From an uncultured Gilliamella sp. (lineage in GTDB: Bacteria; Pseudomonadota; Gammaproteobacteria; Enterobacterales; Orbaceae): a DNA stretch of 48,669 nt. Below are positions 2,874 through 26,676 of the stretch, in pieces (positions within the stretch are counted from its first letter, which is position 1; each line of letters starts with the position of its first letter). The stretch covers positions 1 to 48,669 of the forward strand of contig CALYPG010000020.1 of the NCBI GenBank assembly GCA_945271295.1, written 5' to 3'. A program made the position numbers and the translations under genes. Below the pieces are notes generated by a model. It saw nothing but the letters and a program-made list of their open reading frames with translations. It was not told where the DNA came from and made no database searches.

Positions 2874-3051
2874 TTTTTATAATCAGGTAAGTGTATTGTT
2901 TAATGAAAAGATAATTATGGTAAATTATACCTTTCACAAAGGTAATACAGAAAATTATCATCTAATATTATTTTAATGAAAATGTGATTAAGATGCACGG
3001 TTTATAAAGATACAAATATTATTTGCCAGATTTACTAAGTAATTAACCTAA

Positions 3052-3084
3052 AAAGCCAATGATAAAATAACAATCATTGGCTTT
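3052..3084 (-). terminator. Terminator downstream of the GH43 gene
   Basis: A perfect 12-bp stem (AAAGCCAATGAT / ATCATTGGCTTT) has a 9-base loop. On the minus strand it ends in GGCTTTTT, a rho-independent terminator for the GH43-symporter operon, which ends at 3161. On the plus strand the tail is weaker (CTTTATAAA), but it may also stop the convergent lipoprotein transcript. Confidence 0.75.
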
Positions 3085-3160
3085 ATAAACTATGAATTTA
3101 TTGAAAAACAGGTCTATATAAATGTAATTATAGGCTTATCTTGCAATGTTATTTATTCTT

Positions 3161-4687: not shown

Positions 4688-4733
4688 ACAAATACCTTTT
4701 AATAAAACAACAGCAATAACATAAATAACTAAC

Positions 4734-6119
4734 TTATTGGTTACTTTCTAAATTCTTCTGTCTTGCTAGTAGATCACTTTGAATTTTTTCCATCATCTTG
4801 TCATCTAATTTATAAAAACGCATTAACCACCAAAGTAATAAATAGGAGAATGCAGGCCCAATTGTTAACAAGCCAATAATTCCCATTGTTGCTAGTGGGG
4901 TTTGTACATCAATACCGGCTTGATAGCCTAATAATCCTAAACAGATACCTACTAAAGCACCTGCGACAGCCATACCTAATTTTAAAGCGAATAGATTACC
5001 TGAAAAAGAGAGCCCTGTTGCTCGTACTCCAAATTTCCATTCACCATAGTCAGCTGCATTTGCCATCATATTCCATTTAAATGGTTGATACATTGAATGG
5101 AAAAAGCCTATTAAGAAATAAAGTGGAAAGACGACAGATAACCAAACTGGCGGGATAAAAAACATGATTACACCGATAGCAAATAAGATTAAGTTAATAT
5201 TTTTGAATAATTGAATAGCGGTAAAACGTTTAGCGAAAAAGCCCGCCGTCATAGCACCTAAAATTGTACCAACAACTGAAGTTGATACAAAAGCGGATTT
5301 CATAGCTGTACCTGCTGCTGAGCTTATACCTCCCATCATTAAATAAGTTGCATAATAAAGTGTTGCTGAACTACGCATTACTCCAGCCATACTGGAAAAA
5401 AATGTAATAATTGCAACAATACACCATTGATCATTCGCTAATAAACATTTTAAGTCTTTTTTTACACTGACCTTCTTATCTTCAATAGGCATAACACGTT
5501 CTTTGGTCGTGGCAAAACAGAAGATTAACATGCCAATAGCCATGACTCCCATAACCGCCATAGTTAGTTGGAAACCAAGTTGTTTGTTTTCCTTACCAAA
5601 CCAATCGACTAAAAATAAAGTACCAATAGATACCATTAAACCTGAGGCTGAAGAGATAGTAAAACGAAAAGACTGAGCAGAAAGGCGATCTTTTTCATCA
5701 CGTGTAATGACACCACCTAATGCACAATAAGGAATATTAATAAAGGTATAACACATCATTAATAATGCATAGGTAATGTAGGCATATAAAAGTTTACCGG
5801 AATCACCAAAATCAGGAGTTGTGTAGGTCATAACAGCCAAGACTGCATAAGGAATAGCAAACCAAATTAACCAAGGCCGAAATCGCCCCCATCTGGTTTT
5901 GGTACGATCGGCAATCATACCTGTTATAGGATCGATGATTGCATCAAAAATACGAGTTGCAAGAAACATTATTCCTACAGCTGCAGCTGAAAGCCCATAA
6001 ATATCGGTATAAAAAAAAGTTAAGAACATTGTTACAGATGAATAAACAATTCCACATGCTGCATCACCCATTCCAAAACCTATTTTCTCCATGACTGATA
6101 ACTTTTTATTATTATCCAT
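4734..6119 (-). CDS. GPH-family (glycoside-pentoside-hexuronide:cation) sugar symporter
   Basis: This 461-residue membrane protein has about 12 transmembrane segments. I place the start at ATG 6119 because AGGAG lies about 6 bases upstream, and the protein then begins MDNNKKLSVMEKIGFGMGD, as in the family. An upstream in-frame start at 6149 has no support. The family's signature loop is visible as DAIIDPITGMIADRTKTRWGRFRPW. GPH proteins import sugars with Na+ or H+, and members such as XynT, XylP and YicJ import xylosides. The GH43 gene directly downstream suggests a xylan-derived oligosaccharide as cargo. The gene is first in the operon, behind a near-perfect CRP site. Confidence 0.9.
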   Translation of the reverse strand: MDNNKKLSVMEKIGFGMGDAACGIVYSSVTMFLTFFYTDIYGLSAAAVGIMFLATRIFDAIIDPITGMIADRTKTRWGRFRPWLIWFAIPYAVLAVMTYTTPDFGDSGKLLYAYITYALLMMCYTFINIPYCALGGVITRDEKDRLSAQSFRFTISSASGLMVSIGTLFLVDWFGKENKQLGFQLTMAVMGVMAIGMLIFCFATTKERVMPIEDKKVSVKKDLKCLLANDQWCIVAIITFFSSMAGVMRSSATLYYATYLMMGGISSAAGTAMKSAFVSTSVVGTILGAMTAGFFAKRFTAIQLFKNINLILFAIGVIMFFIPPVWLSVVFPLYFLIGFFHSMYQPFKWNMMANAADYGEWKFGVRATGLSFSGNLFALKLGMAVAGALVGICLGLLGYQAGIDVQTPLATMGIIGLLTIGPAFSYLLLWWLMRFYKLDDKMMEKIQSDLLARQKNLESNQ

Positions 6120-6500
6120 CACAATCTCCTTATCACAATATAAAAACAATTTATAAATTTCTATTTATTAATAATTTATTAGTACTTACAAATTATCAAA
6201 AAATAACGGTAAATTGAGTTTATAAAATTAGTTTTTAAAACAATATTATGATTTTACGTACTGCAATTACGTTATATTGTTAATGTGATAGATATCACAA
6301 TTTTCTTTATGATATTTATTCGTCGATGTGATCGCTTTTTGGATAAAAAATTGGGCAATTTTAAGTGCTAAGTTTAAAAGAGTAAGTAATTAGAACAGTA
6401 CTATTGCCGCTAATCAAAAGATAGAAGTATTAGATTGATAGCCAAATCAATGAGTTAAAACCTTTAAGGTATGGGTTATTGATTGAGTAGCTTTGAATGC
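6120..6500. other. Promoter region of the sugar operon
   Basis: This stretch of about 380 bp upstream of the symporter holds the CRP site at 6284-6299. Near the MATE gene end there is a possible weak terminator: AATCAAT at 6445-6451 pairs with ATTGATT at 6478-6484 around an ACCTTTAAGGT palindrome. No gene is seen. Confidence 0.45.
6284..6299. promoter_or_regulatory. CRP-cAMP binding site
   Basis: TGTGATAGATATCACA matches the CRP consensus TGTGA-N6-TCACA in both half-sites. Its centre is about 172 bp upstream of the symporter ATG, which leaves room for a class I or class II promoter and a leader. Catabolite control fits a plant-sugar uptake operon. Confidence 0.8.
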
Positions 6501-7913
6501 TTAAATTCGCTTTTGATGACGCCATAGCCATTTTCCACTGATTAAACGATAATAGAAGAATATGCTGCGTATAATCCAATCAAGGAACATGCCAAACCAA
6601 ACGCCAATTACCCCAAAACCGAAATAAACGCCTAAAAAATAACCAGCTACAATTCGGCACATCCACATACTACCAATTGCTACCCACATAGTGTAATTGG
6701 CATCTTTAGCGCCTTTAAAGCCATATGGCAAAACAAACGAGGATGCCCAAAATGGTGTAAATAATGCATTAAACCAAAGTAAATATTTAGCAATTTCGAT
6801 TACTTCTTTATCATTTGTGTAGAGTGAACTTAAAAAGCCCGCAAAAGGAATGGATAGAAGTGCCAAAAAGCATAATAAAAAAGTCGTTAAATGAAAGATG
6901 AATTTCAACTGCCGGGTTGGTTGATAAATTTGCCCCATACCAATACGTTTGCCAACGATTATAGTTGATGTTGCACCTAAAGTGTTACCAGGTAAATTCA
7001 ATAAGCCTGCAATTGAAAATGCAATAAAATTAGCGGCTATGGTTGATGTTCCCATTCCTGCTACAAACGTTTGGGTTAACAGTTTGCCGATATTGAACAT
7101 GACTGATTCAACACTCGCGGGAATTCCAATACTAAGAATATCTATAAGAATTTTACCATTAAATGAGTGAAAGTAACTGCGAAAAGGTATAAATAAAGCT
7201 CTGCTTGGTTTGATTGTTAACACCAGTAATATAAAAAACATACCACAATAACGAGCAACCGTTATGCCTATCCCTGCACCTACAAACCCTAGACCGTTCC
7301 AATCAAAAATACCATAAATTAAGATATAACTTATTATTAGATTAAGAATATTCATTATGATATTTAAATACATGGGTAATATGGTATTGCCTGCTCCCCG
7401 CAGCGCACCACAACCCACTAAAATAAATGCTAAAGCAGGGTAACCTAATACTGTTAGTCTAAGAAAGGTTAAGGAAAGATTTTTTACGTCAGGATCAGCC
7501 TTTCCAGCAATGAGATCAATAATCCAATAACCTGAAAATTCTACTAAAATGAATAGCAAAATCGAAATTAAGACCAATAATGTTATAGATTGTCTAGCGG
7601 CAAAAACCGCTTTTTTTTTGTTATGGCGACCTAGACTAAAAGCGACCACCACGGATGTTCCAAGCGCAACTGCCATAAAAAATGACATAATAATCATATT
7701 GAAACTTTCGGCTAATCCTACAGCAGCCATTTCAGCTTTGCCGATCCAACTTACTAAAAAGGTACTAAAAATTCCCATTAATATCACTGACAAGTTTTCA
7801 ATGAAAATAGGAAAAGCTAAAGGATAAATTTCTCTCCATAGTAATACATTGTTTGAATGCCGTTTTTTATATAATTGTGACTTTTTTATGCATTCAATAA
7901 AGTGTACATTCAA
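6501..7913 (-). CDS. MATE family multidrug/Na+ exporter
   Basis: This 470-residue protein has about 12 transmembrane helices in two related halves, typical of MATE exporters. Family features include a long hydrophilic N-terminus leading into REIYPLAFPIFIENL, the segment GVGxAxSFN-like EMAAVGLAESFN, and the helix-7 region GIPASVESVMFNIGKL that restarts the second half. MATE proteins expel cationic compounds using Na+ or H+ gradients. There is no other in-frame Met for about 45 residues, so the ATG at 7913 is the best start, although its Shine-Dalgarno (AAGG) is rather distant. The gene is divergent from queH. The substrate cannot be inferred. Confidence 0.88.
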   Translation of the reverse strand: MNVHFIECIKKSQLYKKRHSNNVLLWREIYPLAFPIFIENLSVILMGIFSTFLVSWIGKAEMAAVGLAESFNMIIMSFFMAVALGTSVVVAFSLGRHNKKKAVFAARQSITLLVLISILLFILVEFSGYWIIDLIAGKADPDVKNLSLTFLRLTVLGYPALAFILVGCGALRGAGNTILPMYLNIIMNILNLIISYILIYGIFDWNGLGFVGAGIGITVARYCGMFFILLVLTIKPSRALFIPFRSYFHSFNGKILIDILSIGIPASVESVMFNIGKLLTQTFVAGMGTSTIAANFIAFSIAGLLNLPGNTLGATSTIIVGKRIGMGQIYQPTRQLKFIFHLTTFLLCFLALLSIPFAGFLSSLYTNDKEVIEIAKYLLWFNALFTPFWASSFVLPYGFKGAKDANYTMWVAIGSMWMCRIVAGYFLGVYFGFGVIGVWFGMFLDWIIRSIFFYYRLISGKWLWRHQKRI

Positions 7914-8038
7914 TTTTAGACCTTAACTTTGATACCTTGAAATGTGGACGCCATTATAACTCCATTATTTAATAAAAATGAATTTATGTTTTAAAAATAA
8001 TTGATAAATCTTATAAATAAGTACTATTAATGTTGAAC

Positions 8039-8067
8039 TTGAATGGTGAATGGCTTCACTATATTAT
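8039..8067 (+). promoter_or_regulatory. Candidate sigma-70 promoter for queH
   Basis: TTGAAT (8039-8044) and TATTAT (8062-8067) are separated by exactly 17 bp. This places the transcription start near 8075, about 40 bases before the queH ATG. Confidence 0.5.
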
Positions 8068-8112
8068 AGCGTGGATAAAAAACTTTAATCATCAAAGTAA
8101 ATTTGAGTCTTT

Positions 8113-8826
8113 ATGCTAATTAATGCCAAAACTATTCTTGAAAAATTAAATCCACATAATAAAGTGAATTATGATTCGGTGTTAAAAGAGGTCATTACAG
8201 ATTGGCAATCGGGATCAATACGACCTAAATTGTTAATACATAGTTGCTGTGCGCCTTGTAGTACCTATGTTTTAGAATATTTGGCTCAATATGCTGACAT
8301 TACTATTTATTTTGCTAATTCGAATATTCATCCTCGGGTCGAATATGAATATAGAAGCGTGGTTCAACAAAAATTTATCACTGATTTCAACCAAAAAACG
8401 AATAATAATGTTCAATTTTTGCAGGCACCTTATCAACCAGCAGAATTTATAAAGCAAGTTGAACATTTACGTGATGCACCAGAAGGTGGTGAGCGTTGTC
8501 ATATATGTTATAAAATGCGCTTAGATTTAGCTGCAATTAAAGCGCTAGAACTCGGATTTGATTATTTTGCGAGTGCTTTGACTTTAAGTCCTAAAAAAAA
8601 TAGCCAAAAAATCAATGAAATTGGTTTTGAAATTCAAGAGATTTTTTCGGTTAATTATCTTCCTTCAGATTTTAAAAAGAACAATGGATATAAGCGATCA
8701 ATTGAACTTTGTAAAGAATATGATGTTTATCGTCAGTGCTATTGTGGATGTATTTTTGCTGCTAAAGCGCAGGGAATTGATATGAAAAATGTAATTACTC
8801 TGGCAAAACAAAGTTTACAAAAATAA
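8113..8826 (+). CDS. queH: Epoxyqueuosine reductase QueH
   Basis: This 237-residue protein is of the DUF208/QueH family, which catalyses the last step of queuosine synthesis in tRNA (epoxyqueuosine to queuosine) and is unrelated to QueG. The expected cysteines are all present: the SCCAPCS motif (Cys45, Cys46, Cys49), GGERCHIC (Cys129, Cys132) and a C-terminal CYCGC cluster. These ligate the iron-sulphur cluster and form the redox-active pair. It is cytoplasmic, of normal family length and monocistronic behind its own promoter. QueH is most common in Firmicutes and anaerobes, though it also occurs in gammaproteobacteria. A copy of the 37-bp dispersed repeat lies 43 bases after the stop. Confidence 0.93.
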   Translation: MLINAKTILEKLNPHNKVNYDSVLKEVITDWQSGSIRPKLLIHSCCAPCSTYVLEYLAQYADITIYFANSNIHPRVEYEYRSVVQQKFITDFNQKTNNNVQFLQAPYQPAEFIKQVEHLRDAPEGGERCHICYKMRLDLAAIKALELGFDYFASALTLSPKKNSQKINEIGFEIQEIFSVNYLPSDFKKNNGYKRSIELCKEYDVYRQCYCGCIFAAKAQGIDMKNVITLAKQSLQK

Positions 8827-9068: not shown

Positions 9069-12000
9069 ATGTCAAAAATTTATAAGCTTGGATTAGATGT
9101 CGGTTCAACCACTGCAAAATGTGTGGTTATTGATGAACATGATAATTTTATTTATACCAATTATGTTCGTCATAATACCCATATTGTTGCAACTGTTCTT
9201 GAATTGCTTGATGAGATAAAACAAAAGATTGGTGAAAATACTGTTTTATCAGTCAAAGTCACAGGTTCAGCTGGTATGGGCATTTCTGAAAAAGCAGGTA
9301 TTGCTTTTATTCAAGAAGTGGTTGCGGCTTCTGAAGTGGTGCAAAGGAAGTATCCTGATGTTCGCACTTTAATTGATATTGGTGGCGAAGACAGTAAGAT
9401 GATTTTTTTCTTTCCTGATCGCCCGCCTGATATTCGGATGAATGGTAGCTGTGCAGGTGGAACAGGGGCATTTATCGACCAGATGGCTACCTTACTTAAT
9501 ACGCCTGTTCAAGAATTTGATCGCCTTGCTCAACAACATGATCAAGTTTTCCCCATTGCTTCCCGCTGTGGTGTTTTTGCCAAAACTGATGTTCAAAATC
9601 TGATTAGTCGTAATGTATCTAAAGAAAATATCGCTTATTCTGTTCTCCATGCAGTCTGTATTCAGTTAATTAATACTCTGGCTCGTGGCTATGATATTGT
9701 ACCGAAAGTCATGTTAATCGGTGGACCTTTTTCGTTTATTCCAACTTTAGGTAAAGCCGCTTTAGAAACACTAAAATTAGATGAAGATCAAATTATCAAA
9801 ACTCAACATCCCACTTTATTATCAGCATGGGGAGCGGCAATTCATGCTATTGAGCGTACTGAACTACCACTATCTGAATTCATCCAAAAATTAAATGATT
9901 CAAGTAAAATTAAAGTTAATGAATCGTTCAGATTAAAACCGCTATTTAATGAATCACTCTCATTTGATAATTGGAAAAAGAAACGCAAATATATTGAAAT
10001 TCCACGAATTGAGCTTGTGAATTATCAAAAGCAGACTGCCTTTTTAGGTATTGATAGTGGATCAACCACCACCAAAATAACCTTAATTAGTGAAGATGAT
10101 GAGTTACTTTTTACGTATTATGCACCGAATAATGGTCAGTCTATTACTGCGTTAATTACTGGTTTAGCTAAGTTAAAAGAAGAGATTGATGCATCTGGCA
10201 AAAATATTGTAATTGCTCGGAGCGGTGTAACCGGATATGGTGAAGAACTTTTAAAAGCTGCGTTTGCTATTGATGACGGTTTAGTTGAAACTATGGCTCA
10301 TTTTGCTGCTGCCAAACATATTGACCCCGAAGTGAGTTTTGTCATGGATATTGGTGGTCAAGATATGAAAGCCATTTTCATTTCAAATGGTGTGGTGAAT
10401 CATATCGAATTAAATGAAGCTTGTTCTTCTGGTTGCGGTTCATTCATTGAAACATTTGCTAAATCGCTCAACTCTAATACCATTGATTTTGCTGATGCAG
10501 CTTGTAAATCGAGTAGTCCATGTGACTTAGGGACGCGCTGTACCGTCTTTATGAATTCAAAAGTGAAACAAGCATTACGTGAAAATGCCACTATGGGGGA
10601 TATTTCGGCAGGCTTAGCTTTTTCAGTGATTAAAAATGCCATTCATAAAGTTCTTAAATTACATGATATGCGCAAGCTTGGTGATCATATTGTTGTACAA
10701 GGTGGAACATTTAAAAATCCTGCGGTATTTCGAGCTTTAGAACAGTTAACAGGTGCACAAATTGCGAGTTCCAACATTCCCGAATTAATGGGGGCATATG
10801 GTTCAGCTTTAGTTGCTAAAAATCATTATCAACAAGATAGGTCTCCATCACAATTTATTGGTTTAGATCATTTAGAAAAAGCACTAGATAACAAGGCTAA
10901 ACCGTCCCGCTGTAAAGGGTGTGAGAATAATTGCGATATTATGATTTATCGCTTTGCTAATGGGCAACGTTACTATTCCGGTAACAAATGCGAACGTTTT
11001 TTAAGTAATAATCAATACAAAGATAATAATTCGTTTAACATGTTTGATTATAAAAATGCGTTGTTATTCGATCGTACTACTCAGTCAAATCCAGATGCAA
11101 AAATAAATATTGGTATTCCTCGTGTATTAGGACAATATGAAAACTTTCCATTTTGGCATACTTTATTAACCCAATGCGGTATTAATGTTACACTTTCACC
11201 TTATTCAACTCATCGTATTTATGAAAAAGGTGCTGGAACAGTGATGTCTGATAGTATCTGTTTCCCGGCTAAATTGGTTCACGGTCATATTATGGAACTT
11301 ATCGAACAAAAAGTTGACCGAATTTTTATGCCGATGGTGGTTTTTGAATCAGCTCAATTTGGTAATGCGGTAAATAGTTATAACTGCCCGATTGTCAGTA
11401 GTTATGCCGAAGTTATGCATAGTGCCATTAATCCTGAGTTGAAATATGGTGTACCAATTGATTATCCAGTTATTAATTTTACCGATATTAAATTACTCAA
11501 AAAAGGTTGTATCAATTACCTTCAATCATTAGGTATTGTAAAAAAAATCGCGACTAAAGCGTTTACTGCCGCTTTAAATGCGCAAGCTGAATTTAAACAA
11601 GCGTTATATAAAAAAGAGGTAGAAGTATTAAATAATGCTAAACAAACAGGACGCGATGTTTTTATATTAGCTGGTCGTCCTTATCATAGTGATAGTTTAA
11701 TTAATCATAAAACCCCAGAGATATTAAACGCTTTAGGTTGTGATGTAATCACTGAAGATTCAGTATTAGGTTCAATCAATCAATTATCACCAGAGTTACA
11801 GATTTGTTCGCAATGGAGTTATCCTAACCGCTTATATGCTTCGGCAACATTTGTTGCTGAACAGGCAAATAATGTGCAATTTGTACAACTGAATTCATTT
11901 GGTTGTGGTCCTGATGCAATCGTCACCGATGAATGTAAAGCAATATTAGAATCAAAAGGTAAAACCTGCACCGTTATTCGGGTAGATGAAATTACGGCTA

Positions 12001-13343
12001 CCGGTTCAGTAAGATTACGTTTACGTTCAATTATTGAATCTATCAGGATGAATCGTAATCAACCGCTTAAAACAACTGAACGTAAGAAAACGGCTGTTTT
12101 TGAATTACAAGACAAACAACGACGCACTATTTTGGCACCGTTTATTTCTGATTTTTATTCGCCGATTTTACCGCCAATTTTTGCTTTATCTGGTTATAAA
12201 CTTGAAACTTTACCAAAACCTGATAAAAGTTCAGTTGAATGGGGATTAAAATATTGTAATAACGAAATTTGTTATCCTGCAACGATTATTGTTGGCGATA
12301 TCATCAAAGCATTAAGATCCGGTAAATATAATCGCGATGAAGTTGCAATAGGTATTACCCAAACCGGTGGTCAGTGTCGCGCAAGTAGTTATTTGTCATT
12401 GATAAAAAAAGCGATGATTAGTAATGGTTTTGAGGATATTCCCATTATTTCGCTCAGTACCGGCAATATTAACGAAATTGAACAACCCGGTTTTAAAATC
12501 AATTGGTTAAAAACGTTACCCATTACTTTCTTTGCTATGTTATTTGCAGATTCACTGTCAAAAATGTACTACGCTACGGCGCCGAGAGCACGGGTAAAAA
12601 AACAAGCCGATCAGCTTAAAGAGTACTATACTAGAAAGTTGCAACAACTAATTACTGAGCGCAAAGGGCATAAAGCCATTTATGCTCTTTTAGCCTATGC
12701 AGTTAATCATTTTAACCAAGTTGAAACGCTCAATAAAGAGTGTCCGCAAATTGGTATTGTTGGTGAAATCTATGTTAAATATAACAGTTTTGGGAACCAA
12801 CATAGTGTTGAATGGTTAGTTGAACAAGGTATTGAACCGGTTATTCCGCCAATGATTGAATTTTTTGCTCAATGCTTTGTGAATTATGATAGTAATATTG
12901 ACAATTACTTGTCAGCAAAAAATTATGTTTCTTATTTATTGTACTTTTTTGAAAAAGTGGCACAAAGGTATATTAATAAAACTAACCAAATATTAGCTGG
13001 ATTCAAATATTATCAGCCTTTTCATAGTATTCGAGATATGGCGAAAAAAGCACAAGAAATCCTTAATCTATCTAATCAATTTGGTGAAGGATGGCTTATT
13101 CCAGCCGGAATTATGACTTTTGCCGAACACGGCATTAACAATGTCATTAGTTTACAACCATTTGGTTGTATTGCTAATCATGTCGTTTCTAAAGGCGTCG
13201 AAAAACGTATGCGTGATCTTCATCCCAAGTTAAATTTATTGTATTTGGATTTTGATGATGGGGCCGGAGAGGTAAACGTCCTTAATCGTTTACATTTTAT
13301 GGTTAGTTCATTAAAGTATACACAACTACAGAGAATTGTATAA
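9069..13343 (+). CDS. Giant 2-hydroxyacyl-CoA dehydratase activase-related protein (BadF/BadG + DUF2229)
   Basis: This 1424-residue protein has two tandem ASKHA ATPase domains of the BadF/HgdC type. The first begins GLDVGSTTAKC (residue 8) and the second GIDSGSTTTK (residue 327). Domain 1 has the cluster-bridging cysteines Cys128 (NGSCAGGTG) and Cys167 (ASRCGVF). Domain 2 has NEACSSGCGSF and LGTRCTVF. A DUF2229 domain starts near residue 680 (IGIPRVLGQYENFPFW), and the C-terminal region has further conserved Cys motifs (GGQCRASSY). HgdC-type activases use ATP to inject a low-potential electron into a dehydratase via a [4Fe-4S] cluster. No dehydratase subunit gene is in the window, so the partner is unknown. 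Homologues of this length are typical of anaerobes. Confidence 0.9.
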   Translation: MSKIYKLGLDVGSTTAKCVVIDEHDNFIYTNYVRHNTHIVATVLELLDEIKQKIGENTVLSVKVTGSAGMGISEKAGIAFIQEVVAASEVVQRKYPDVRTLIDIGGEDSKMIFFFPDRPPDIRMNGSCAGGTGAFIDQMATLLNTPVQEFDRLAQQHDQVFPIASRCGVFAKTDVQNLISRNVSKENIAYSVLHAVCIQLINTLARGYDIVPKVMLIGGPFSFIPTLGKAALETLKLDEDQIIKTQHPTLLSAWGAAIHAIERTELPLSEFIQKLNDSSKIKVNESFRLKPLFNESLSFDNWKKKRKYIEIPRIELVNYQKQTAFLGIDSGSTTTKITLISEDDELLFTYYAPNNGQSITALITGLAKLKEEIDASGKNIVIARSGVTGYGEELLKAAFAIDDGLVETMAHFAAAKHIDPEVSFVMDIGGQDMKAIFISNGVVNHIELNEACSSGCGSFIETFAKSLNSNTIDFADAACKSSSPCDLGTRCTVFMNSKVKQALRENATMGDISAGLAFSVIKNAIHKVLKLHDMRKLGDHIVVQGGTFKNPAVFRALEQLTGAQIASSNIPELMGAYGSALVAKNHYQQDRSPSQFIGLDHLEKALDNKAKPSRCKGCENNCDIMIYRFANGQRYYSGNKCERFLSNNQYKDNNSFNMFDYKNALLFDRTTQSNPDAKINIGIPRVLGQYENFPFWHTLLTQCGINVTLSPYSTHRIYEKGAGTVMSDSICFPAKLVHGHIMELIEQKVDRIFMPMVVFESAQFGNAVNSYNCPIVSSYAEVMHSAINPELKYGVPIDYPVINFTDIKLLKKGCINYLQSLGIVKKIATKAFTAALNAQAEFKQALYKKEVEVLNNAKQTGRDVFILAGRPYHSDSLINHKTPEILNALGCDVITEDSVLGSINQLSPELQICSQWSYPNRLYASATFVAEQANNVQFVQLNSFGCGPDAIVTDECKAILESKGKTCTVIRVDEITATGSVRLRLRSIIESIRMNRNQPLKTTERKKTAVFELQDKQRRTILAPFISDFYSPILPPIFALSGYKLETLPKPDKSSVEWGLKYCNNEICYPATIIVGDIIKALRSGKYNRDEVAIGITQTGGQCRASSYLSLIKKAMISNGFEDIPIISLSTGNINEIEQPGFKINWLKTLPITFFAMLFADSLSKMYYATAPRARVKKQADQLKEYYTRKLQQLITERKGHKAIYALLAYAVNHFNQVETLNKECPQIGIVGEIYVKYNSFGNQHSVEWLVEQGIEPVIPPMIEFFAQCFVNYDSNIDNYLSAKNYVSYLLYFFEKVAQRYINKTNQILAGFKYYQPFHSIRDMAKKAQEILNLSNQFGEGWLIPAGIMTFAEHGINNVISLQPFGCIANHVVSKGVEKRMRDLHPKLNLLYLDFDDGAGEVNVLNRLHFMVSSLKYTQLQRIV

Positions 13344-13423: not shown

Positions 13424-14032
13424 GTGTTATCAATTTATCAATTAAAACCGAAGTTTCAATCACTACTCCGTCCTTATGCGAAATCACTTTTTGATGCCAA
13501 AATAACCGCTAACCAAGTAACTCTAAGTGCCTGTTTAGGTTCAATAATAGTGGCACTGTTGGTTGGCTGGTTAGCACAATATCAAATGATATTTATACTA
13601 ATACCACTATGGATGTTTATCCGTATGGCACTTAATGCAATTGATGGTATGTTAGCGCGCGAATTTAATCAAAAATCGAATTTAGGTGCGTATTTAAATG
13701 AGATCTGTGATGTGATCTCTGATAGTGTATTGTTATTCATTTTTACACAAATTAATGATGTCAGTGTAAGTTTAGTCATTTTTGTTGTGCTGCTCTCATT
13801 TTTAACTGAGTTTGTTGGTGTCTTAGCCGTCATGATTGGCGCTTCAAGACGCTACGATGGACCAATGGGTAAAAGTGATCGTGCTTTTATTTTTGGTGTA
13901 ATTAGTTTCGGGATAGCAACGCATTTATTACCCTTGCATTGGATCAATGCCATGTTATGGATTATTAGTATATTACTTATTTATACGGTAATTAATCGAA
14001 TCAGGAAAGGTTTGCAAAACGTTGCAAAATAG
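13424..14032 (+). CDS. ynbA: YnbA-like CDP-alcohol phosphatidyltransferase
   Basis: This 202-residue integral membrane protein closely resembles E. coli YnbA from its first residues (LSIYQLKPKFQSLLRP) to its end. The start is a GTG at 13424 with a weak AGGAT upstream, supported by alignment with YnbA. The CDP-alcohol phosphotransferase motif is present but altered: Asn71-Ala-Ile-Asp74-Gly, Ala78-Arg79, Gly88, Asn92 and Asp96. Two of the four metal-binding Asp positions (71 and 92) are Asn. From memory the same two Asn occur in E. coli YnbA, so this looks like a subfamily trait. The enzyme should join a CDP-activated lipid and an alcohol at the inner membrane; the products are unknown. It is first of five genes. 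Confidence 0.85.
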   Translation: MLSIYQLKPKFQSLLRPYAKSLFDAKITANQVTLSACLGSIIVALLVGWLAQYQMIFILIPLWMFIRMALNAIDGMLAREFNQKSNLGAYLNEICDVISDSVLLFIFTQINDVSVSLVIFVVLLSFLTEFVGVLAVMIGASRRYDGPMGKSDRAFIFGVISFGIATHLLPLHWINAMLWIISILLIYTVINRIRKGLQNVAK

Positions 14033-14045
14033 TATGGAGAACATT

Positions 14046-15797
14046 ATGCGTCAACATGAAGAAAAATCATTTATTAGTCATGATGGTTGCAAGTTATTTT
14101 ATCGTTATTGGCCAGCTGTTGAAAGTGGAACTAATACTTCTCAAGCAATAGTTCTTTTTCATCGTGGACATGAACATTCTGGACGTGTTGCTCATTTGGC
14201 TGATGAATTTAATCTACCTGATTATCAATTTTTTGCGTGGGATGCTAGAGGTAACGGACAATCCGAAGGTGAACGTGGGGATGCTGAAAATATTGCAACT
14301 TTAGTGAAAGATGCACATTGTTTTATTGAGCATATTACACAAGAATATTCTATCCCTCCAAAAGATATAGCCATTATCGCTCAAAGTGTTGGTGCCGTTA
14401 TCGCGGCTGCTTGGGTGCATGATTATGTACCCAAAATTCGTGCCTTAGTATTAGGTTCGCCAGCTTTTAGTGTCAAACTTTATGTTCCTTTAGCAGTACC
14501 AGGATTGAAATTACTTTATAATTTTAAAGGTAATTTTTTTGTTAATAGTTATGTTAAACCTAAATTATTAACTCATGATACCCAAAGAGCAGAGTCATTT
14601 GCAAAAGATCCTTTAATTACCAGACGTATTTCGGTTCGTCTGTTACTTGATTTATATACGGTATCAGATCGCATTATTCAAGATGCTAATGCTATTACCG
14701 TACCTACACAATTATTAGTCTCAGGTTCAGATTATGTGGTCAGGCGCAAACCGCAAAGACAATTTTATGAAAATTTGGGAACGGTACAAAAAGAGTTCCA
14801 TGTATTACCAGGATTTTATCATGATACCTTTGGTGAAAAAGATCGTCAGATCGCAATTGATCGAGCAAGACGCTTTATTTTAGGGTGTTTTGCTAGTGAG
14901 CCTCATCAGCCATGTTTACTTAATGCCGATCAGGTAGGGTATACCAGATTAGAGTCGGATAAGTTAGCATTGCCACCATCAGGTTGGATTAAGCCTTTGT
15001 ATTGGAAGTTTATTAAAGCAAATTTAAAATATGCTAGCAAACTATCAGAAGGTATAAAACTTGGCGCTGAAACTGGTTTTGATTCGGGAAGTACACTTGA
15101 TTATGTGTATCGTAATCAACCCTCCGGTACTTCTAAACTTGGACAATTTTTTGATTATATTTACTTACAAGCAATTGGTTGGAAAGGCATTCGCCAACGC
15201 AAAGTTCATCTTGAAGAATTAATAAAACTGGCTATCAATCAATTACAGCAGCAAAATAAAGTTGTTAATATTGTTGATATCGCTGCTGGGCATGGTCGTT
15301 ATATTTTAGAAACGATCAATCAAATAGCAAATAAACCTAATTCAGTTTTACTTCGAGACTTTAGTGATCTTAATGTCGAAAAAGGTAAAATATTAATCGA
15401 AGAAAAAGGGTTGTCAGATCTGGTGCATTTTGAACAAGGTGATGCATTTAATCGGCAACAGCTTAGTGAATTATCGCCTAAACCAACTTTAGCTGTGGTT
15501 TCTGGTTTATATGAGCTTTTTGGTGATAATCATCTGTTAAATGAATCTTTGTCAGGATTAGCTGATGCAATACCAGTCGGCGGATATTTTATTTATACCA
15601 ATCAACCTTGGCACCCACAATTAGAGTTTATTGCAAGAACATTAACCTCTCATCGTGATGGTCAACCTTGGATCATGCGTAGACGAACTCAACTTGAAAT
15701 GGATCAATTAGTGGCTAATGCAGGTTTTAAAAAGGTCACTATGCTTATAGATCAATGGGGAATATTTACGGTATCACTAGCTCAACGTGTTAGCTGA
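14046..15797 (+). CDS. ynbC: YnbC-like alpha/beta hydrolase-methyltransferase fusion
   Basis: This protein has about 583 residues. I place the start at ATG 14046 because GGAG lies 6 bases upstream and ynbA stops at 14032; an ATG at 14034 is less well placed. The N-terminal half is an alpha/beta hydrolase of the monoglyceride-lipase type, with FHRGHEHSGR (oxyanion region), WDARGNGQSEG and the nucleophile elbow AQSVG with Ser114. The C-terminal part carries a class I SAM-binding motif, VDIAAGHGRYILE. This fusion is the architecture of E. coli YnbC. It presumably acts on the acyl chains and head group of the lipid handled by YnbA and YnbB. It has no signal peptide. The coupling to ynbA and ynbD is tight. 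Confidence 0.85.
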   Translation: MRQHEEKSFISHDGCKLFYRYWPAVESGTNTSQAIVLFHRGHEHSGRVAHLADEFNLPDYQFFAWDARGNGQSEGERGDAENIATLVKDAHCFIEHITQEYSIPPKDIAIIAQSVGAVIAAAWVHDYVPKIRALVLGSPAFSVKLYVPLAVPGLKLLYNFKGNFFVNSYVKPKLLTHDTQRAESFAKDPLITRRISVRLLLDLYTVSDRIIQDANAITVPTQLLVSGSDYVVRRKPQRQFYENLGTVQKEFHVLPGFYHDTFGEKDRQIAIDRARRFILGCFASEPHQPCLLNADQVGYTRLESDKLALPPSGWIKPLYWKFIKANLKYASKLSEGIKLGAETGFDSGSTLDYVYRNQPSGTSKLGQFFDYIYLQAIGWKGIRQRKVHLEELIKLAINQLQQQNKVVNIVDIAAGHGRYILETINQIANKPNSVLLRDFSDLNVEKGKILIEEKGLSDLVHFEQGDAFNRQQLSELSPKPTLAVVSGLYELFGDNHLLNESLSGLADAIPVGGYFIYTNQPWHPQLEFIARTLTSHRDGQPWIMRRRTQLEMDQLVANAGFKKVTMLIDQWGIFTVSLAQRVS

Positions 15798-15800
15798 TTT

Positions 15801-17126
15801 ATGGTGAACCTGTTGAAGCTCAAATTTAACCAACTTACTTTATACAAATGTGTTTGGTTGGTTGGTTTGTCGATTTTTTTCTTTGTGAGCTATAATTTTG
15901 CTAATTGGTTTACCTCAACTCGCGCCGATGTAGGAAGTTTAGTTTTTACTTGGGAAGTTTCAATTCCATTATTGCCTTGGTTCATAATCCCTTATTGGTC
16001 AATAGATATTATGTATGGTCTGGCAATTTTATTGGCCAATTCTAGACAATCCCTCAAAACTCTGTGCTTGCGGTTGTTATCTGCCCAAATTATTTGTATT
16101 CTCTGTTTTTTGCTTTTCCCGCTTAAATTTAGTTTTGAACGACCTATTGTAAACGGCTTATCAGGCTGGTTACTTGATATTTTGATGGGATTTGATAAAC
16201 CTTTTAATCAAGCACCTTCGTTGCATATTACCTTACTCGTGATTTTATGGGCATTTTATAGTAACTATTTGCGTAGTTATTGGCGTTATGTATTACATAT
16301 TTGGTGTTTATTAATAGGCATATCAGTGTTAACTACCTGGCAACATCATTTTTTTGATATTCCGACAGGAATTTGGGTTGGATGTTTGTGTATTTGGTTA
16401 TGGCCAGATAATGGATTATCACCGTTAAAAAATTACCAATTACCTAAACAATATTTATGGTGCGGTATCTATTTTGTCTGCTACTTATTGTCATTTGGTT
16501 TAGCTATTTATTTTCATGCATGGGGACTTTGGTTGTTATGGTTGTCAGGCTCTTTCTTGCTAGTATCAGCTAATTATTGCCTATTTGGTGCCACTGGATT
16601 TCAAAAACAAGCTAACGGAAGTTTCAATTTTGCGGTAACTATTCTATATTTGCCGTATTTTTTGATTATGTGGCTAAATTCACGCTTATGGACCTATAAA
16701 AAACAAGCCATAAATCACATTTGCGAGAATATTTATCTTGGCAGAATTCCATCAAATAATCTATTAAGCCAAAATCAATTTACTTCAGTTGTTGATCTTT
16801 GTGCTGAGTTACCCATTAGTAAGTTTGCCGGCAATTATTCGTTGATACCAGTGCTCGATATGACACCATTGACGGCTAAAGTGTGCCAGAAAGCCGCATC
16901 AATTATCGAACAATATCATCAGCAAGGGAAAGTATTAGTTTATTGCGCATTAGGTTATTCTCGAAGTGCGACTGCCATTATTGCTTGGTTATTATGGAGT
17001 AATCGAGCAAACAATGTTGATAATGCCATCAATATAGTCAAGAAAAGTCGTCAAAATATTGTTATTTCAGCGCAACAACGACAAATTTTAATAAATTGGT
17101 TTTTACAAACCAAAAACAGGAAATAG
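15801..17126 (+). CDS. ynbD: YnbD-like PAP2 / dual-specificity phosphatase fusion
   Basis: This 441-residue membrane protein starts 3 bases after the ynbC stop. The first ~310 residues form several transmembrane helices containing a PAP2-type site: His142 in APSLH, then His183 and Asp186 in QHHFFDIPTG. The soluble C-terminal ~120 residues are a tyrosine/dual-specificity phosphatase-like domain with the P-loop YCALGYSRS, catalytic Cys382 and its Arg. The residue before Cys is Tyr rather than the usual His. The architecture matches E. coli YnbD. By analogy, PAP2_3 domains can be head-group transferases and PTPMT1-type domains remove phosphate from phosphatidyl-glycerophosphate. A lipid phosphatase/transferase role is therefore reasonable but unproven. 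Confidence 0.82.
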   Translation: MVNLLKLKFNQLTLYKCVWLVGLSIFFFVSYNFANWFTSTRADVGSLVFTWEVSIPLLPWFIIPYWSIDIMYGLAILLANSRQSLKTLCLRLLSAQIICILCFLLFPLKFSFERPIVNGLSGWLLDILMGFDKPFNQAPSLHITLLVILWAFYSNYLRSYWRYVLHIWCLLIGISVLTTWQHHFFDIPTGIWVGCLCIWLWPDNGLSPLKNYQLPKQYLWCGIYFVCYLLSFGLAIYFHAWGLWLLWLSGSFLLVSANYCLFGATGFQKQANGSFNFAVTILYLPYFLIMWLNSRLWTYKKQAINHICENIYLGRIPSNNLLSQNQFTSVVDLCAELPISKFAGNYSLIPVLDMTPLTAKVCQKAASIIEQYHQQGKVLVYCALGYSRSATAIIAWLLWSNRANNVDNAINIVKKSRQNIVISAQQRQILINWFLQTKNRK

Positions 17127-17128
17127 TT

Positions 17129-17608
17129 ATGTGTAAAACTCAACATAGCGAAATAACTGATAACATAAATAAAACCACATTAGTAACCTTTTGTAGTTTA
17201 CTCACCATCAGTAAACCAATTGATTGCTTTTCACAGTTATTGACAGTGTTAGCTTTAGGCATTGCGATAATTTCAAGTTGGTGGACTGACACAGTATTGT
17301 TAACAATTTTATGTTGTGCAGTGTTTGTTAGCGGTTTAATGGCTAAATATTATGCTCTTCGACTTTATTTGGATAAGAAGCTATTTGATTACTTAGTTAA
17401 TCACCTAGATCAATTGCCTAAAACACTCGTTGAATTGGATGAAGCATTAATAAAATTAAAATTAATCAAAAACACTCTCACTTCACGAACATTAAACGAG
17501 CGTCAGTATGGTACAGTTAAATTATTAAAGAAACAAATAATAGCGTTGGCTATACAGCTGCTACTACTGATAATTTCAGTATTTATTGGCATTTTTTATA
17601 TTAAATGA
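17129..17608 (+). CDS. Small membrane protein of the ynb operon, unknown family
   Basis: The frame is open from 17096, but ATG 17129 has AGGAAA a few bases upstream and starts 2 bases after the ynbD stop, so it is chosen. The product is 159 residues. Two adjacent hydrophobic segments (about residues 36-52 and 56-78) form a hairpin. A charged, probably helical stretch follows, then a C-terminal membrane segment (about 138-157). No family is recognised, and the gene is absent from the E. coli ynbABCD operon as I know it. Its position inside an otherwise conserved operon makes a scaffold or accessory role for the lipid enzymes likely; that is inference. Confidence 0.7.
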   Translation: MCKTQHSEITDNINKTTLVTFCSLLTISKPIDCFSQLLTVLALGIAIISSWWTDTVLLTILCCAVFVSGLMAKYYALRLYLDKKLFDYLVNHLDQLPKTLVELDEALIKLKLIKNTLTSRTLNERQYGTVKLLKKQIIALAIQLLLLIISVFIGIFYIK

Positions 17609-17660
17609 AGTTATAGTATTTACCATGAATTTTATGCTGAATTAGTTATGGGGGTATTTA

Positions 17661-18599
17661 ATGTCAAGCTATCAACGCGATACTATACTGCTTTTTGTAG
17701 GCATAGGATTATTACTGGTTGTCGCCTCCGTTATAGGTTGGTTATTAAAACATCGCATAAGTACCCCAAATAAAGTAATTGATAATCTCAATTCTCGCAT
17801 CAATTCTTGGTGGGTAATGGTGGTCATCATTGGTTTTACTTTTTTATTGGGTAAATTAGCGGTAGTTTTTCTATTTTTTGTTGCATCGGGATTTGCTTTA
17901 CGCGAATTTCTTATCTTAACGCCCATAACACGTTATGATTATTATGCACTACTATTTGCTTTTTATGTGGCACTACCGTTGCAATATATTTTGGTGGCTA
18001 TTTCATGGTATGGTTTATTTAGTATTTTTATTCCGATATATGCTTTTTTGTTATTGGCTATTTTGGCTTCAATAACTGGATCGACAAATAATTTTTTAGA
18101 AAGAACAGCTGAGGTGCAATGGGGACTTATGATTACTGTTTATTGTATTTCTTGTGTGCCAGCACTGTTGACATTAGAAATCAATAACTACCAAGACCGC
18201 AATTTATTACTTATTGCTTTTTTAATCTTGGTCGTGCAACTCTCTGATGTATTGCAATACGTATTTGGTAAGCTATTTGGCAAACATAAAATTGCACCAA
18301 ATTTATCACCGTCAAAAACCATTGAAGGTTTTTTGGGAGGAATTTTAACAGCAAGCATGATTGGGGCTTGTCTTTTTTGGATTACACCATTTAGCTTTAT
18401 TCAGGCTGGTTTGATTTCTTTGCTAATTACTTTGTTTGGTTTTATGGGGGGATTAGTTATGTCTGCCATAAAACGCGATAGAGGGGTAAAAGATTGGGGT
18501 AAAGTGATAAGCGGACATGGAGGTGTGCTTGATCGTTTAGATTCAGTTTGTTTTGCTGCACCCATTTTTTTCCATATTGTACGTTATTTTTGGGTATAA
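17661..18599 (+). CDS. ynbB: YnbB-like phosphatidate cytidylyltransferase (CdsA paralogue)
   Basis: This 312-residue polytopic membrane protein carries the CdsA signature in full near its C-terminus: Ser268-Ala-Ile-Lys-Arg, Lys-Asp, then GHGG-VLDRLD with the last Asp at 294. The family makes CDP-diacylglycerol from CTP and phosphatidate. YnbB is the E. coli CdsA paralogue. GGGGG precedes the ATG at 17661. The gene closes the operon, 52 bp after the small membrane protein, whereas in E. coli ynbB is second. The genome presumably has a housekeeping cdsA elsewhere, so this copy likely supplies a dedicated activated lipid for YnbA. Confidence 0.87.
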   Translation: MSSYQRDTILLFVGIGLLLVVASVIGWLLKHRISTPNKVIDNLNSRINSWWVMVVIIGFTFLLGKLAVVFLFFVASGFALREFLILTPITRYDYYALLFAFYVALPLQYILVAISWYGLFSIFIPIYAFLLLAILASITGSTNNFLERTAEVQWGLMITVYCISCVPALLTLEINNYQDRNLLLIAFLILVVQLSDVLQYVFGKLFGKHKIAPNLSPSKTIEGFLGGILTASMIGACLFWITPFSFIQAGLISLLITLFGFMGGLVMSAIKRDRGVKDWGKVISGHGGVLDRLDSVCFAAPIFFHIVRYFWV

Positions 18600-23962: not shown

Positions 23963-25363
23963 GTGAGTTATTTATCTATTGAATTTGGTTTACTTTTTAT
24001 TATTTTTTTTGCTTTCTATTGGGCATGCTATTTATCACCTAAATTACAAAATAATCTATTACTAATAATTAGTTATTTGATTGTTAGTAGTTATAGTTGG
24101 CAATTTGCACTTATCCTTTTTATTTACACCTGCATTATTTATTTCTTTTCAGTCATAATATCTAAATCTGAGCGTCATGCAAAACTGTGGTTAATTGTCA
24201 GTTTGTTTGTATCGATAACTAACTTAGCCTTATTTAAATATTTTGATTTCTTTAGATATGAAATACAAGCGCTGCTCAACTTCTGGCATTTATCAATTGC
24301 ATTACCTTTGATTTCAGTATTAATGCCTATTGGCATATCATTTTATACATTCCATTCTATTAGTTATTTGGTTTCCGTCAAAAATAAAGAAATACCAGTA
24401 GCTAAATTTTGGGATTTTGTATTATTTTTATCGTTTTTCCCCAGCATTATTGCCGGTCCCATTAATCGAGCTAAAGAATTTTTACCACAAATTGCAATTA
24501 CTCAATCTCGCCAAATTATAGAGCCGTTTCGTGCTTTTACTCTGATTATGCTGGCAGTAATAAAAGTTTACTGTTTTGGTGCTTTGATTAATGATAATTG
24601 GGTTAATCCTATTTTTGCTAATCCAATAGAATTTAATGTTATCGATTTATTAGTTGGTCTTTATGCTTATGCCATTCAACTATATTTAAACTTCTCTGGC
24701 TATACGGATTTAGTGACCGCTATTGCTTTATTGCTCGGTTTTCGTTTACCTATCAACTTTAATTTCCCTTATTTAGCACTGAATTTACGTGATTTTTGGT
24801 ATCGTTGGCATATTAGTTTATCCAACTGGATTCGTGATTATATTTATATCCCTCTTGGTGGCAACCGTTGTGGTTTTATCCGAACACAAATTAATGTTAT
24901 GTTAGCAATGATATTGTCTGGTTTATGGCATGGAGCAGGAATTAATTTCATTATTTGGGGAGCTATTCATGGTTTAGGTATTGTTGCACTCAATATTGGT
25001 GATCGTTATTTAGGACAAGGCTTGGTGACAAAGTATTTACCTACCCTTGCCAGATTATTGACCTGGCATTATGTTTGTTTTACTTGGTTGTTTTTTTATT
25101 GTGAAAGCTTATCGGATGTTGGGGATTATTTTACGGCATTAACCAGTAATTTTTTAATAAAACCACATTACCCAGAAGTATTCCTGATTTTTTGCTTTAT
25201 ATGTGTTATTTATTCGAAGTGTAAAACTTTTCCTGAATGGTTCATAAAACAACTTTCCAAAGTAAATCGAGTTTGTTTGCCTTTTATTTTTATTTTGATA
25301 ATGTGGTTAACTATTTATATAGCGCCGTCAGGCGTACCAAATTTTATTTATGCTAATTTCTAA
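23963..25363 (+). CDS. MBOAT (AlgI/PatA-like) membrane O-acyltransferase
   Basis: This 466-residue protein begins at GTG 23963 behind AAAGGA. It has about 10 membrane segments. The MBOAT signatures are present: RDFWYRWHISLSNWIRDYIYIPLGGNR and the catalytic His323 in GLWHGAG. Relatives such as AlgI and PatA move acyl (usually acetyl) groups across the inner membrane for O-acetylation of alginate, peptidoglycan or other glycans. The two SGNH genes downstream complete a transfer cassette like patA-patB. The acceptor is not revealed: there is no alginate gene nearby, so peptidoglycan or a surface polysaccharide is likely. Confidence 0.9.
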   Translation: MSYLSIEFGLLFIIFFAFYWACYLSPKLQNNLLLIISYLIVSSYSWQFALILFIYTCIIYFFSVIISKSERHAKLWLIVSLFVSITNLALFKYFDFFRYEIQALLNFWHLSIALPLISVLMPIGISFYTFHSISYLVSVKNKEIPVAKFWDFVLFLSFFPSIIAGPINRAKEFLPQIAITQSRQIIEPFRAFTLIMLAVIKVYCFGALINDNWVNPIFANPIEFNVIDLLVGLYAYAIQLYLNFSGYTDLVTAIALLLGFRLPINFNFPYLALNLRDFWYRWHISLSNWIRDYIYIPLGGNRCGFIRTQINVMLAMILSGLWHGAGINFIIWGAIHGLGIVALNIGDRYLGQGLVTKYLPTLARLLTWHYVCFTWLFFYCESLSDVGDYFTALTSNFLIKPHYPEVFLIFCFICVIYSKCKTFPEWFIKQLSKVNRVCLPFIFILIMWLTIYIAPSGVPNFIYANF

Positions 25364-25422
25364 TTATGCTATTTAGTAACAATGATATATAGAGAATAAT
25401 TTTTTAATAATAAGAGTCTAAA

Positions 25423-26676
25423 TTGAGTTTAAAATTCCAATATTATAATTTTTCGAATGAGAATATTGTCCAACAGTCTAATAAATTAGAGAAAACAAAC
25501 AATAATCTATTTATTTCGACTGAGAAATCCTTATCTGCTCGGAACATTTTCGTTCTATTAACTATTACCGCTATTGGGTTAATGGTTGTTTATTACAATT
25601 CAATTTTAATTTATTGGCAACAGACATATCATTTTGAACTTTTAAATACAAATACGCTAACCACACAAAACACTTTAGAAGATGAGCCTAAACCGGTCAA
25701 AATTCATGATGAAAACACCGAGGAAAATAGTTCAGTATCAAAAGATAATATTCTTGTTCAAGTGCATTCTTATATATTACCTCAATTTAGGAAAAAAAAA
25801 TCTAATACAGCTGCTTTACCAAGTAAAACTGCTGACAAAAACAATAAAACCAAAGAATCAGTTGAACAAAATGCTATAAAGAATGAAACCGTTAATAACC
25901 ATTCCAATCCCAATTCTCAGGAAACAAAGGATGACAATAATATCAATCAACCAATGTTACAGAGCACCGCTTTACCGGACAAAATATCAGAAATTATCGC
26001 AATTTATAAACCATTACCGATTTTTTTGACTGAAAAAGATAAGGTTTTATTTGCTGGCGATTCTTTAATGCAAGGTGTTGCACCTCATGTTAAAAAAATG
26101 TTATTTAAAAAGTATAAAATAGAAAGTGTTAATTTCAGTAAGCAAAGCACTGGACTTGCTTACCCCAGTGCTTTTGACTGGCCAAAAACAATTAATGATA
26201 ACATAGTAGCAGATCCTTCAATTAAATTACTCGTTATGTTTTTGGGCCCTAACGACCCTTGGGACTTTCCGGTTAAAGGTTATGCTAAATTTGCAAGATT
26301 CAAGTCTGAGCTCTGGGAGCAACAATATCGTTTGCGAATAGCTACAATTTTACATATCGCCAAAGAACATAACGTTCAAGTACTTTGGCTTGCAGCACCT
26401 TGTATGCGTAAACCAAAACTAAATGAAGGTATGGTTTATTTAAATACTCTATATAAATCAGAATTAGAAAAAACACAGCAGCACTTTCTAACAACTAATG
26501 AATTATTGGGTTGTACATACGAAAAATTCAGTAATTTTATCGAAACGAATAAAGTTAAAATAAAAGTAAGAGTTGATGATGGTATTCATTTCACACCGTC
26601 AGGTCAAAAAATTTTGGCTAATGCCATTATGGAAAAAATCACTTTTAAAGACTTAGAGGATACCGACAGTGATTAA
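25423..26676 (+). CDS. Membrane-anchored SGNH/DUF459-type acyltransferase
   Basis: This 417-residue protein probably starts at TTG 25423; the next in-frame Met is about 50 residues in. One transmembrane segment (about residues 43-65) anchors it. A low-complexity Asn/Lys/Thr-rich linker runs to about residue 190, followed by a periplasmic SGNH domain. Catalytic positions: Ser214 in GDS, Gly275, Asn277 in GPND, Asp386 and His389 in DGIH. The domain should pass acetyl groups from the MBOAT protein to the glycan or remove them. It is the second gene of the cassette and overlaps the third by 8 bases. Confidence 0.82.
   Translation: MSLKFQYYNFSNENIVQQSNKLEKTNNNLFISTEKSLSARNIFVLLTITAIGLMVVYYNSILIYWQQTYHFELLNTNTLTTQNTLEDEPKPVKIHDENTEENSSVSKDNILVQVHSYILPQFRKKKSNTAALPSKTADKNNKTKESVEQNAIKNETVNNHSNPNSQETKDDNNINQPMLQSTALPDKISEIIAIYKPLPIFLTEKDKVLFAGDSLMQGVAPHVKKMLFKKYKIESVNFSKQSTGLAYPSAFDWPKTINDNIVADPSIKLLVMFLGPNDPWDFPVKGYAKFARFKSELWEQQYRLRIATILHIAKEHNVQVLWLAAPCMRKPKLNEGMVYLNTLYKSELEKTQQHFLTTNELLGCTYEKFSNFIETNKVKIKVRVDDGIHFTPSGQKILANAIMEKITFKDLEDTDSD

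What the first reader, a model, noticed from the sequence alone, without database searches (positions are those of the whole stretch)
13424..18599. Rearranged ynb-type lipid operon with an extra membrane protein
Five tightly packed genes encode a CDP-alcohol phosphotransferase, a hydrolase-methyltransferase fusion, a PAP2-phosphatase fusion, an unknown membrane protein and a CdsA paralogue. E. coli has the order ynbA-B-C-D; here ynbB is last and an orphan precedes it. Together they could activate, transfer, dephosphorylate and methylate or deacylate a lipid head group, i.e. make a lipid whose identity is not known. This is the best candidate for an uncharacterised pathway in the window.
Basis: partly seen in the sequence, partly recalled or inferred. 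Interest (0 to 1): 0.72.

Follow-up and report, generated by a model that had tools for sequence, protein, structure and literature searches.

The report
Arc1/Ynb lipid operon in Gilliamella
A bee-gut bacterium carries a five-gene version of a widespread lipid-making gene set that, in Pseudomonas, helps cells survive rivals' lipid-cutting toxins; the lipid it makes is still unknown, and one of its enzymes has an unusual but conserved active site.

Summary
The five genes are real and correctly placed, in a Gilliamella genome. The "rearranged, with an orphan" reading is turned round. A-C-D-X-(acyltransferase)-B is the common order, and the "orphan" X is a conserved core member. E. coli ynbABCD is a reordered form lacking two genes. 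In an even sample of 398 genomes of the phylum, 27 carry gene C; of the 26 besides the window's own, 22 hold all six genes within 18 kb.

The set is homologous to arc1A-F (PA2541-36) of Pseudomonas aeruginosa, shown by mapping published deletion-primer sequences onto a fetched genome. There arc1 protects against type VI secretion attack, and arc1A (in one of two studies) against lipase effectors. So a phenotype is published; the lipid product is not. The Gilliamella copies seen lack the arc1E acyltransferase.

New to me, and in none of the passages I read: all 107 CDP-alcohol phosphotransferases of this type that I aligned have Asn for two of the four metal-binding Asp (N/D/N/D). Best explanation: an inducible operon making a special anionic lipid from CDP-diacylglycerol that helps membranes withstand lipase damage. 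Linking ynb to arc1 makes its chemistry testable in E. coli K-12.

The parts
13424..14032 (+). A (arc1A / ynbA homologue): CDP-alcohol phosphotransferase, 202 aa, GTG start, with an N71-D74-N92-D96 metal-site motif instead of D-D-D-D
   Evidence: Pfam PF01066; nearest NCBIfam models are archaetidylinositol-phosphate and phosphatidylinositol-phosphate synthase, both far under cut-off; nearest solved structures PIP synthases 6h53/6h5a; motif counted in 107 sequences
14022..15797 (+). C (arc1B / ynbC homologue): alpha/beta-hydrolase fused to Methyltransf_20; probable true start ATG 14034
   Evidence: Pfam PF12146 and PF12147; nearest solved structures monoacylglycerol lipases; NCBIfam lysophospholipase L2 38.6 bits, cut-off 362
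15801..17126 (+). D (arc1C / ynbD homologue): membrane PAP2-type domain (PSLH, HHxxD) fused to a dual-specificity phosphatase domain (CX5R)
17096..17608 (+). X (arc1D homologue): small helical, probably membrane, protein with a conserved [RL]xFDxxLF motif; probable true start ATG 17129
   Evidence: profile finds it between D and the acyltransferase/B in most loci; alignment of 28 with invariant F97, D115, L123, R136, G139; model of five helices, pLDDT 86.5; no PDB match with E <= 0.001
17661..18599 (+). B (arc1F / ynbB homologue): CdsA paralogue, 312 aa, with the complete CdsA signature
   Evidence: Pfam PF01148; solved structure 4q2g/4q2e CdsA; strict signature in 111 of 115 relatives, the 4 misses differing by a residue or so

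Best explanation
The five genes are the Gilliamella form of one widespread operon, called arc1A-F in P. aeruginosa and ynbABCD in E. coli. Most likely it is a dedicated, inducible membrane-lipid pathway. B (Arc1F/YnbB) activates phosphatidic acid with CTP to CDP-diacylglycerol. A (Arc1A/YnbA) transfers the phosphatidyl group to a phosphorylated alcohol, most likely glycerol-3-phosphate or a relative. The dual-specificity phosphatase domain of D removes the terminal phosphate. The hydrolase and methyltransferase domains of C, and perhaps the PAP2 domain of D, remodel or cap the product or clear lysolipids. X is a membrane partner. The acyltransferase arc1E normally feeds phosphatidic acid from lysolipids; Gilliamella lacks it and must use its general acyltransferase. 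The end result is an anionic lipid that helps the membrane withstand phospholipase damage, such as lipase effectors of rivals' type VI secretion. Shown here: homology, gene set, order, conserved catalytic motifs. Shown in P. aeruginosa by others: the defence phenotype. Inferred: every chemical step, the identity of the lipid, and the role in bees.
Confidence: 0.55

Rival explanations
1. A second route to ordinary phosphatidylglycerol: acyltransferase, CdsA, PgsA-like and PTPMT1-like steps rebuild normal lipid after damage; C only clears lysophospholipid.
For: PMC8926400 states four products resemble phosphatidylglycerol-synthesis enzymes; C's hydrolase is nearest to monoacylglycerol lipases and its nearest curated model by score is lysophospholipase L2; no inositol-phosphate synthase in the genome.
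Against: A is nearest to inositol-phosphate-type synthases, not PgsA, and has a different metal site from the genome's own PgsA-like enzyme. The methyltransferase and X would have no role.
Confidence: 0.22
2. The operon makes or tops up an MPIase-type glycolipid precursor (GlcNAc-PP-diacylglycerol).
For: PMC6362211 (passages): YnbB overproduction raises MPIase in E. coli while YnbB does not replace CdsA.
Against: The same passages report no clear change of MPIase in a ynbB knockout and do not mention ynbA. A CDP-alcohol phosphotransferase plus phosphatase is not needed for that product, and no glycosyltransferase was seen among the operon genes.
Confidence: 0.08
3. A is a regulatory or scaffold pseudoenzyme, and protection comes from C (lysophospholipase) and the acyltransferase alone.
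For: Both D1 and D3 are Asn in 107 of 107; in PMC6506517 D3 bridges both metals (passages).
Against: The other motif residues and the basic acceptor-site residues are invariant in 107 of 107, which suggests catalysis is kept; arc1A is one of the genes whose loss gives the phenotype.
Confidence: 0.12

Closest known systems
arc1A-F (PA2541-36), Pseudomonas aeruginosa antagonism resistance cluster 1
   Same: Homologous A, C, D, X and B genes in the same order; window identities to locus L192 57, 57, 48, 32, 67%
   Different: Gilliamella lacks arc1E, the acyltransferase (0 of 12 named and 0 of 13 unnamed, overlapping loci; own genome only a 26% match); Gac/Rsm control not tested
ynbABCD of Escherichia coli
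   Same: Homologues of A, B, C, D; 47, 38, 53, 37.5% identical
   Different: Order A-B-C-D; X and acyltransferase not found in the locus
Six-gene set on Citrobacter sp. TSA-1 IncF plasmid (L093)
   Same: A, B, C, D, an acyltransferase and a small hypothetical gene after D
   Different: Order A-B-P-C-D-hypothetical; the hypothetical gene was not caught by my X profile
Phosphatidylinositol-phosphate synthases and Bacteroides inositol-lipid cluster (PMC9246714)
   Same: Logic of CDP-diacylglycerol plus phospho-alcohol, then a phosphatase; A is nearest to these synthases
   Different: Aspartates replaced; no inositol-phosphate synthase in the genome

Membership tests
Arc1 (arc1A-F) | Homologues of PA2541-36 in the same order | tested here: met
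   Five of six in order A-C-D-X-B; primer anchors
Arc1 (arc1A-F) | Sixth gene, acyltransferase arc1E | tested here: not met
   Absent between X and B in the window and in the Gilliamella loci; own genome best match 26%, E 1.3e-4
Arc1 (arc1A-F) | Protection against type VI antagonism | not testable with these tools
   Phenotype known only from P. aeruginosa
Arc1 (arc1A-F) | Gac/Rsm control | not tested
   One AGGA lies before the GTG start, indistinguishable from a ribosome-binding site
ynbABCD | Order A-B-C-D | tested here: not met
   Order is A-C-D-X-B
CDP-alcohol phosphotransferase | D1xxD2GxxAR...GxxxD3xxxD4 | tested here: not met
   N/D/N/D in 107 of 107 aligned; PF01066 is nevertheless over its cut-off, so it belongs to the fold family but not to the canonical active-site class
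CdsA-type CTP transferase | C-terminal CdsA signature (K-R-x4-K-D...GHGGxxDRxD) | tested here: met
   Window has it; strict pattern 111 of 115 relatives
PTPMT1-like lipid phosphatase | Fold and CX5R site | tested here: inconclusive
   CX5RS 96 of 96; PTPMT1 ranks first but is tied with protein phosphatases
Inositol-phospholipid synthesis | Source of inositol phosphate (PF01658 synthase) | tested here: not met
   0 of 1 in own genome; rings in 6 of 14 control genomes

The most novel reading that the evidence does not exclude
The arc1/ynb operon makes a previously undescribed anionic, possibly methyl-capped phospholipid by means of a new N/D/N/D class of CDP-alcohol phosphotransferase, and this lipid makes the membranes of bee-gut and many other proteobacteria tolerant of rivals' lipase toxins.
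Probability: 0.3. Interest if true: 0.75.

Novelty: new member of a known kind. Interest (0 to 1): 0.5.

Why it matters
It joins three threads that the passages I read keep apart: E. coli ynbABCD (one gene studied for MPIase), P. aeruginosa arc1 (a defence phenotype without a product) and the uncharacterised sixth family X. The search 'ynb' gives no hit in the main texts of PMC8926400 or PMC12663445. The link lets the product be sought in E. coli K-12. The invariant N/D/N/D site predicts a changed metal or substrate chemistry in a well-studied enzyme fold and is directly testable. It also puts a candidate collective-defence lipid in a gut community known for type VI conflict (PMC8125069, passages).

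Tried and rejected
Rejected: a rearranged operon with an extra orphan (the window has the common order). Rejected as unlikely here: inositol lipid (no PF01658 synthase in the genome). Not in PADLOC-DB at E <= 0.01 (5 proteins). Association of the operon with own type VI genes or DUF2339 in 35 genus genomes: not significant. Fold of X: no PDB match with E <= 0.001, a weak statement for a helical bundle. The PAP2 half of D was barely tested by the fold comparison, so no statement on its relatives. Promoter-like sites: 37 found against 30.4 expected, uninformative. A likeness of PSLH to Aur1-type transferases is recalled, not tested. A regex (HH...D, 1 of 96) was mis-spelled and replaced (HH..D, 96 of 96). 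Literature: 10 of 10 searches used; a claim that something is not in print goes no further than these and the passages read.

Limits: the 80 named loci are the best of 106 found from B and are biased to its close kin. The named and unnamed Gilliamella loci overlap (same contigs by length). Proteins with a stop inside the domain or of under 150 aa (A) were dropped before the motif counts. Contig-edge loci are counted as they stand.
Full report
WHAT IS THERE. Five same-strand ORFs lie at 13424-18599 as described. Families: CDP-alcohol phosphotransferase (A), hydrolase plus methyltransferase (C), PAP2-type plus dual-specificity phosphatase (D), no family (X), CdsA type (B). The window lies in a 2.80-Mb genome, G000. 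Genomes of its genus hold contigs of the same length as named Gilliamella records (for example 76501 and 525183 bases), and the closest named match of B is Gilliamella, 89%. Flanks: a 1424-aa CoA-activase-like ORF upstream, HPr downstream.

THE COMMON FORM HAS SIX GENES. Profiles built from the window's proteins, and from an acyltransferase (P) annotated in a Rhizobium plasmid copy, were run over the loci. Among the 80 named loci that have B, 68 are outside Gilliamella; 52 of these have C, and of those 52 have A, D, P and B, and 51 have X. The usual order is A-C-D-X-P-B: 38 loci with A in line and 14 with A turned round, of the named set with L083-085, L093 and L094. That set was gathered through B and is biased, so I also took an even sample: 398 genomes of the phylum searched with C, 27 with a match at 1e-40, in 13 of 213 genera. 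Of the 26 besides the window's own, 22 have A, C, D, X, P and B inside the stretch of up to 18 kb that I fetched; the exceptions are L165 and L166 (A, C, D, X), L175 (A, C) and L176 (A, C, P, B). Thirteen of the 16 named non-Gilliamella loci without C have P beside B with none or few of the others, four of them A-P-B and two P-B-A (one search list; four of the 16 are short or contig-edge records: L045, L052, L063, L079). So A+P+B looks like a core to which C, D and X were added; that is inference.

E. COLI IS THE REDUCED FORM. An annotated E. coli record has ynbA-B-C-D and no gene between or after them on that strand that could be X or P. A Citrobacter plasmid has A-B-P-C-D plus a small hypothetical gene, an intermediate. 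C was detected at DNA level in 3591 of 5426 E. coli genomes, as partial matches only.

IN GILLIAMELLA. 26 of 35 genomes of the genus have C at 1e-20, two of them partial (G593, G602), and 9 lack it. P was found in 0 of 12 named and 0 of 13 unnamed loci, which overlap; the own genome has only a 26% match at E 1.3e-4. One member, G598, carries the A-B-C-D-X arrangement, and its C groups with Citrobacter with support 100/95, away from the other Gilliamella. So at least one horizontal exchange happened within the genus. The window's C groups with the genus's main form; its link to the Pseudomonas-type family f161 is only 86/78.

IDENTITY WITH ARC1. Recall suggested PA2536-41. PMC8926400 names this cluster arc1A-F; I read its sections 5, 6 and 7 and passages. 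To test the link I used its published deletion-primer strings. One of 25 genomes of genus g215, G614, has the PA2536-start string exactly. In the stretch L192 the PA2541-start (5394), PA2541-end (6033), a downstream string (7015, minus strand) and PA2536-start (10317) match exactly. The upstream string (4413) and the PA2536-end string (11255) match with one mismatch. The profiles give A 5406-6005, C, D, X, P and B 10274-11257 there. So arc1A is A and arc1F is B. In PMC8926400 arc1 mutants are unfit under B. thailandensis type VI attack, but removing single effectors (Tle1, Tle3, Tae2, ColA) did not relieve the defect. In PMC12663445 (section 10 and passages) arc1A loss sensitises to Tle1 and TseL lipases, in an auxiliary role beside arc3A. 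The two studies thus differ on how lipase-directed arc1 is.

THE ODD ACTIVE SITE. CDP-alcohol phosphotransferases share D1xxD2GxxAR...GxxxD3xxxD4; all four Asp hold two metals, D3 bridges them and D4 is the presumed base (PMC6506517, passages). Aligning A to solved PIP synthases puts Asn at D1 and D3. Over 107 distinct sequences (window included; 100 from loci with C and 7 without) the residues at D1, D2, D3 and D4 are N, D, N and D in 107 of 107. K150, R153 and R192 are invariant as well, while the Arg of 'AR' is V or I in three. The genome's own second enzyme has the canonical motif. One search for this (161 papers, 20 listed, passages of two read) showed no report of it.

MECHANISM. B has the full CdsA signature, and YnbB passages report CDP-diacylglycerol-linked activity without replacing CdsA (PMC6362211). 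Invariant basic residues in A and the presence of a phosphatase suggest a phosphorylated acceptor. No inositol-phosphate synthase was found, which favours glycerol-3-phosphate or another sugar- or alcohol-phosphate. D's phosphatase domain folds like PTPMT1, though tied with protein phosphatases. C's hydrolase is nearest to monoacylglycerol lipases, and its serine motif is kept in 98 of 98. The methyltransferase motif I that I wrote down fits 84 of 98. X is a five-helix model without a PDB match at E <= 0.001. Each chemical step is inferred.

CONTEXT. The genome has a type VI sheath gene and a DUF2339 gene of the Arc3A type. Bee-gut Gilliamella are known for type VI systems, and G. apis lacks them (PMC8125069, passages), yet G. 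apis NO3 keeps the operon (L013). Over 35 genomes neither own type VI genes (p 0.42) nor DUF2339 (p 0.12) is associated with the operon. A defence against others need not track own weapons, but the test gives no support.

VERDICT. A real, conserved operon, a member of the arc1/ynb kind in a five-gene form, with a published phenotype in a relative and an unknown product. The invariant N/D/N/D site and the ynb-arc1 link are what is worth following.

Noticed in passing
L093 (Citrobacter sp. TSA-1 plasmid), 3048-8634: Six-gene form of the operon on an IncF plasmid between a Tn3-family transposase/recombinase and repA, so it can travel on mobile DNA.
   Followed up: partly
L085 (Burkholderia ambifaria 19-kb plasmid): Six-gene set with B and P divergent from A-C-D-hypothetical, beside cellulose genes.
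   Followed up: no
L016 (Campylobacter MAG contig, 10.7 kb): A-P-B and C-D-X separated by one extra gene in a record labelled Campylobacter; could be real transfer or binning error.
   Followed up: no
L015, L043, L019, L041: Smaller sets of acyltransferase + CdsA paralogue, in three of these four with the N-type CDP-alcohol phosphotransferase, without C and D; in L015 and L043 the AR of the motif is AV.
   Followed up: partly
L012 (Gilliamella mensalis), L010 (Gilliamella sp. Lep-s35): Decayed copies: L012 keeps A and B and a shortened X but C and D are gone; L010 has A, C and D in pieces.
   Followed up: no
window 23963-27853: MBOAT acyltransferase, DUF459/GDSL protein and Ape1-like O-acetylesterase side by side, perhaps a peptidoglycan O-acetylation set.
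   Followed up: no
window 34974-37658: 894-aa ORF with an inverse-autotransporter beta-domain, a likely surface protein.
   Followed up: no
window 9069-13343: 1424-aa ORF of BadF/BcrA-type ATPase and DUF2229 domains (CoA-enzyme activase-like), directly upstream of the operon.
   Followed up: no
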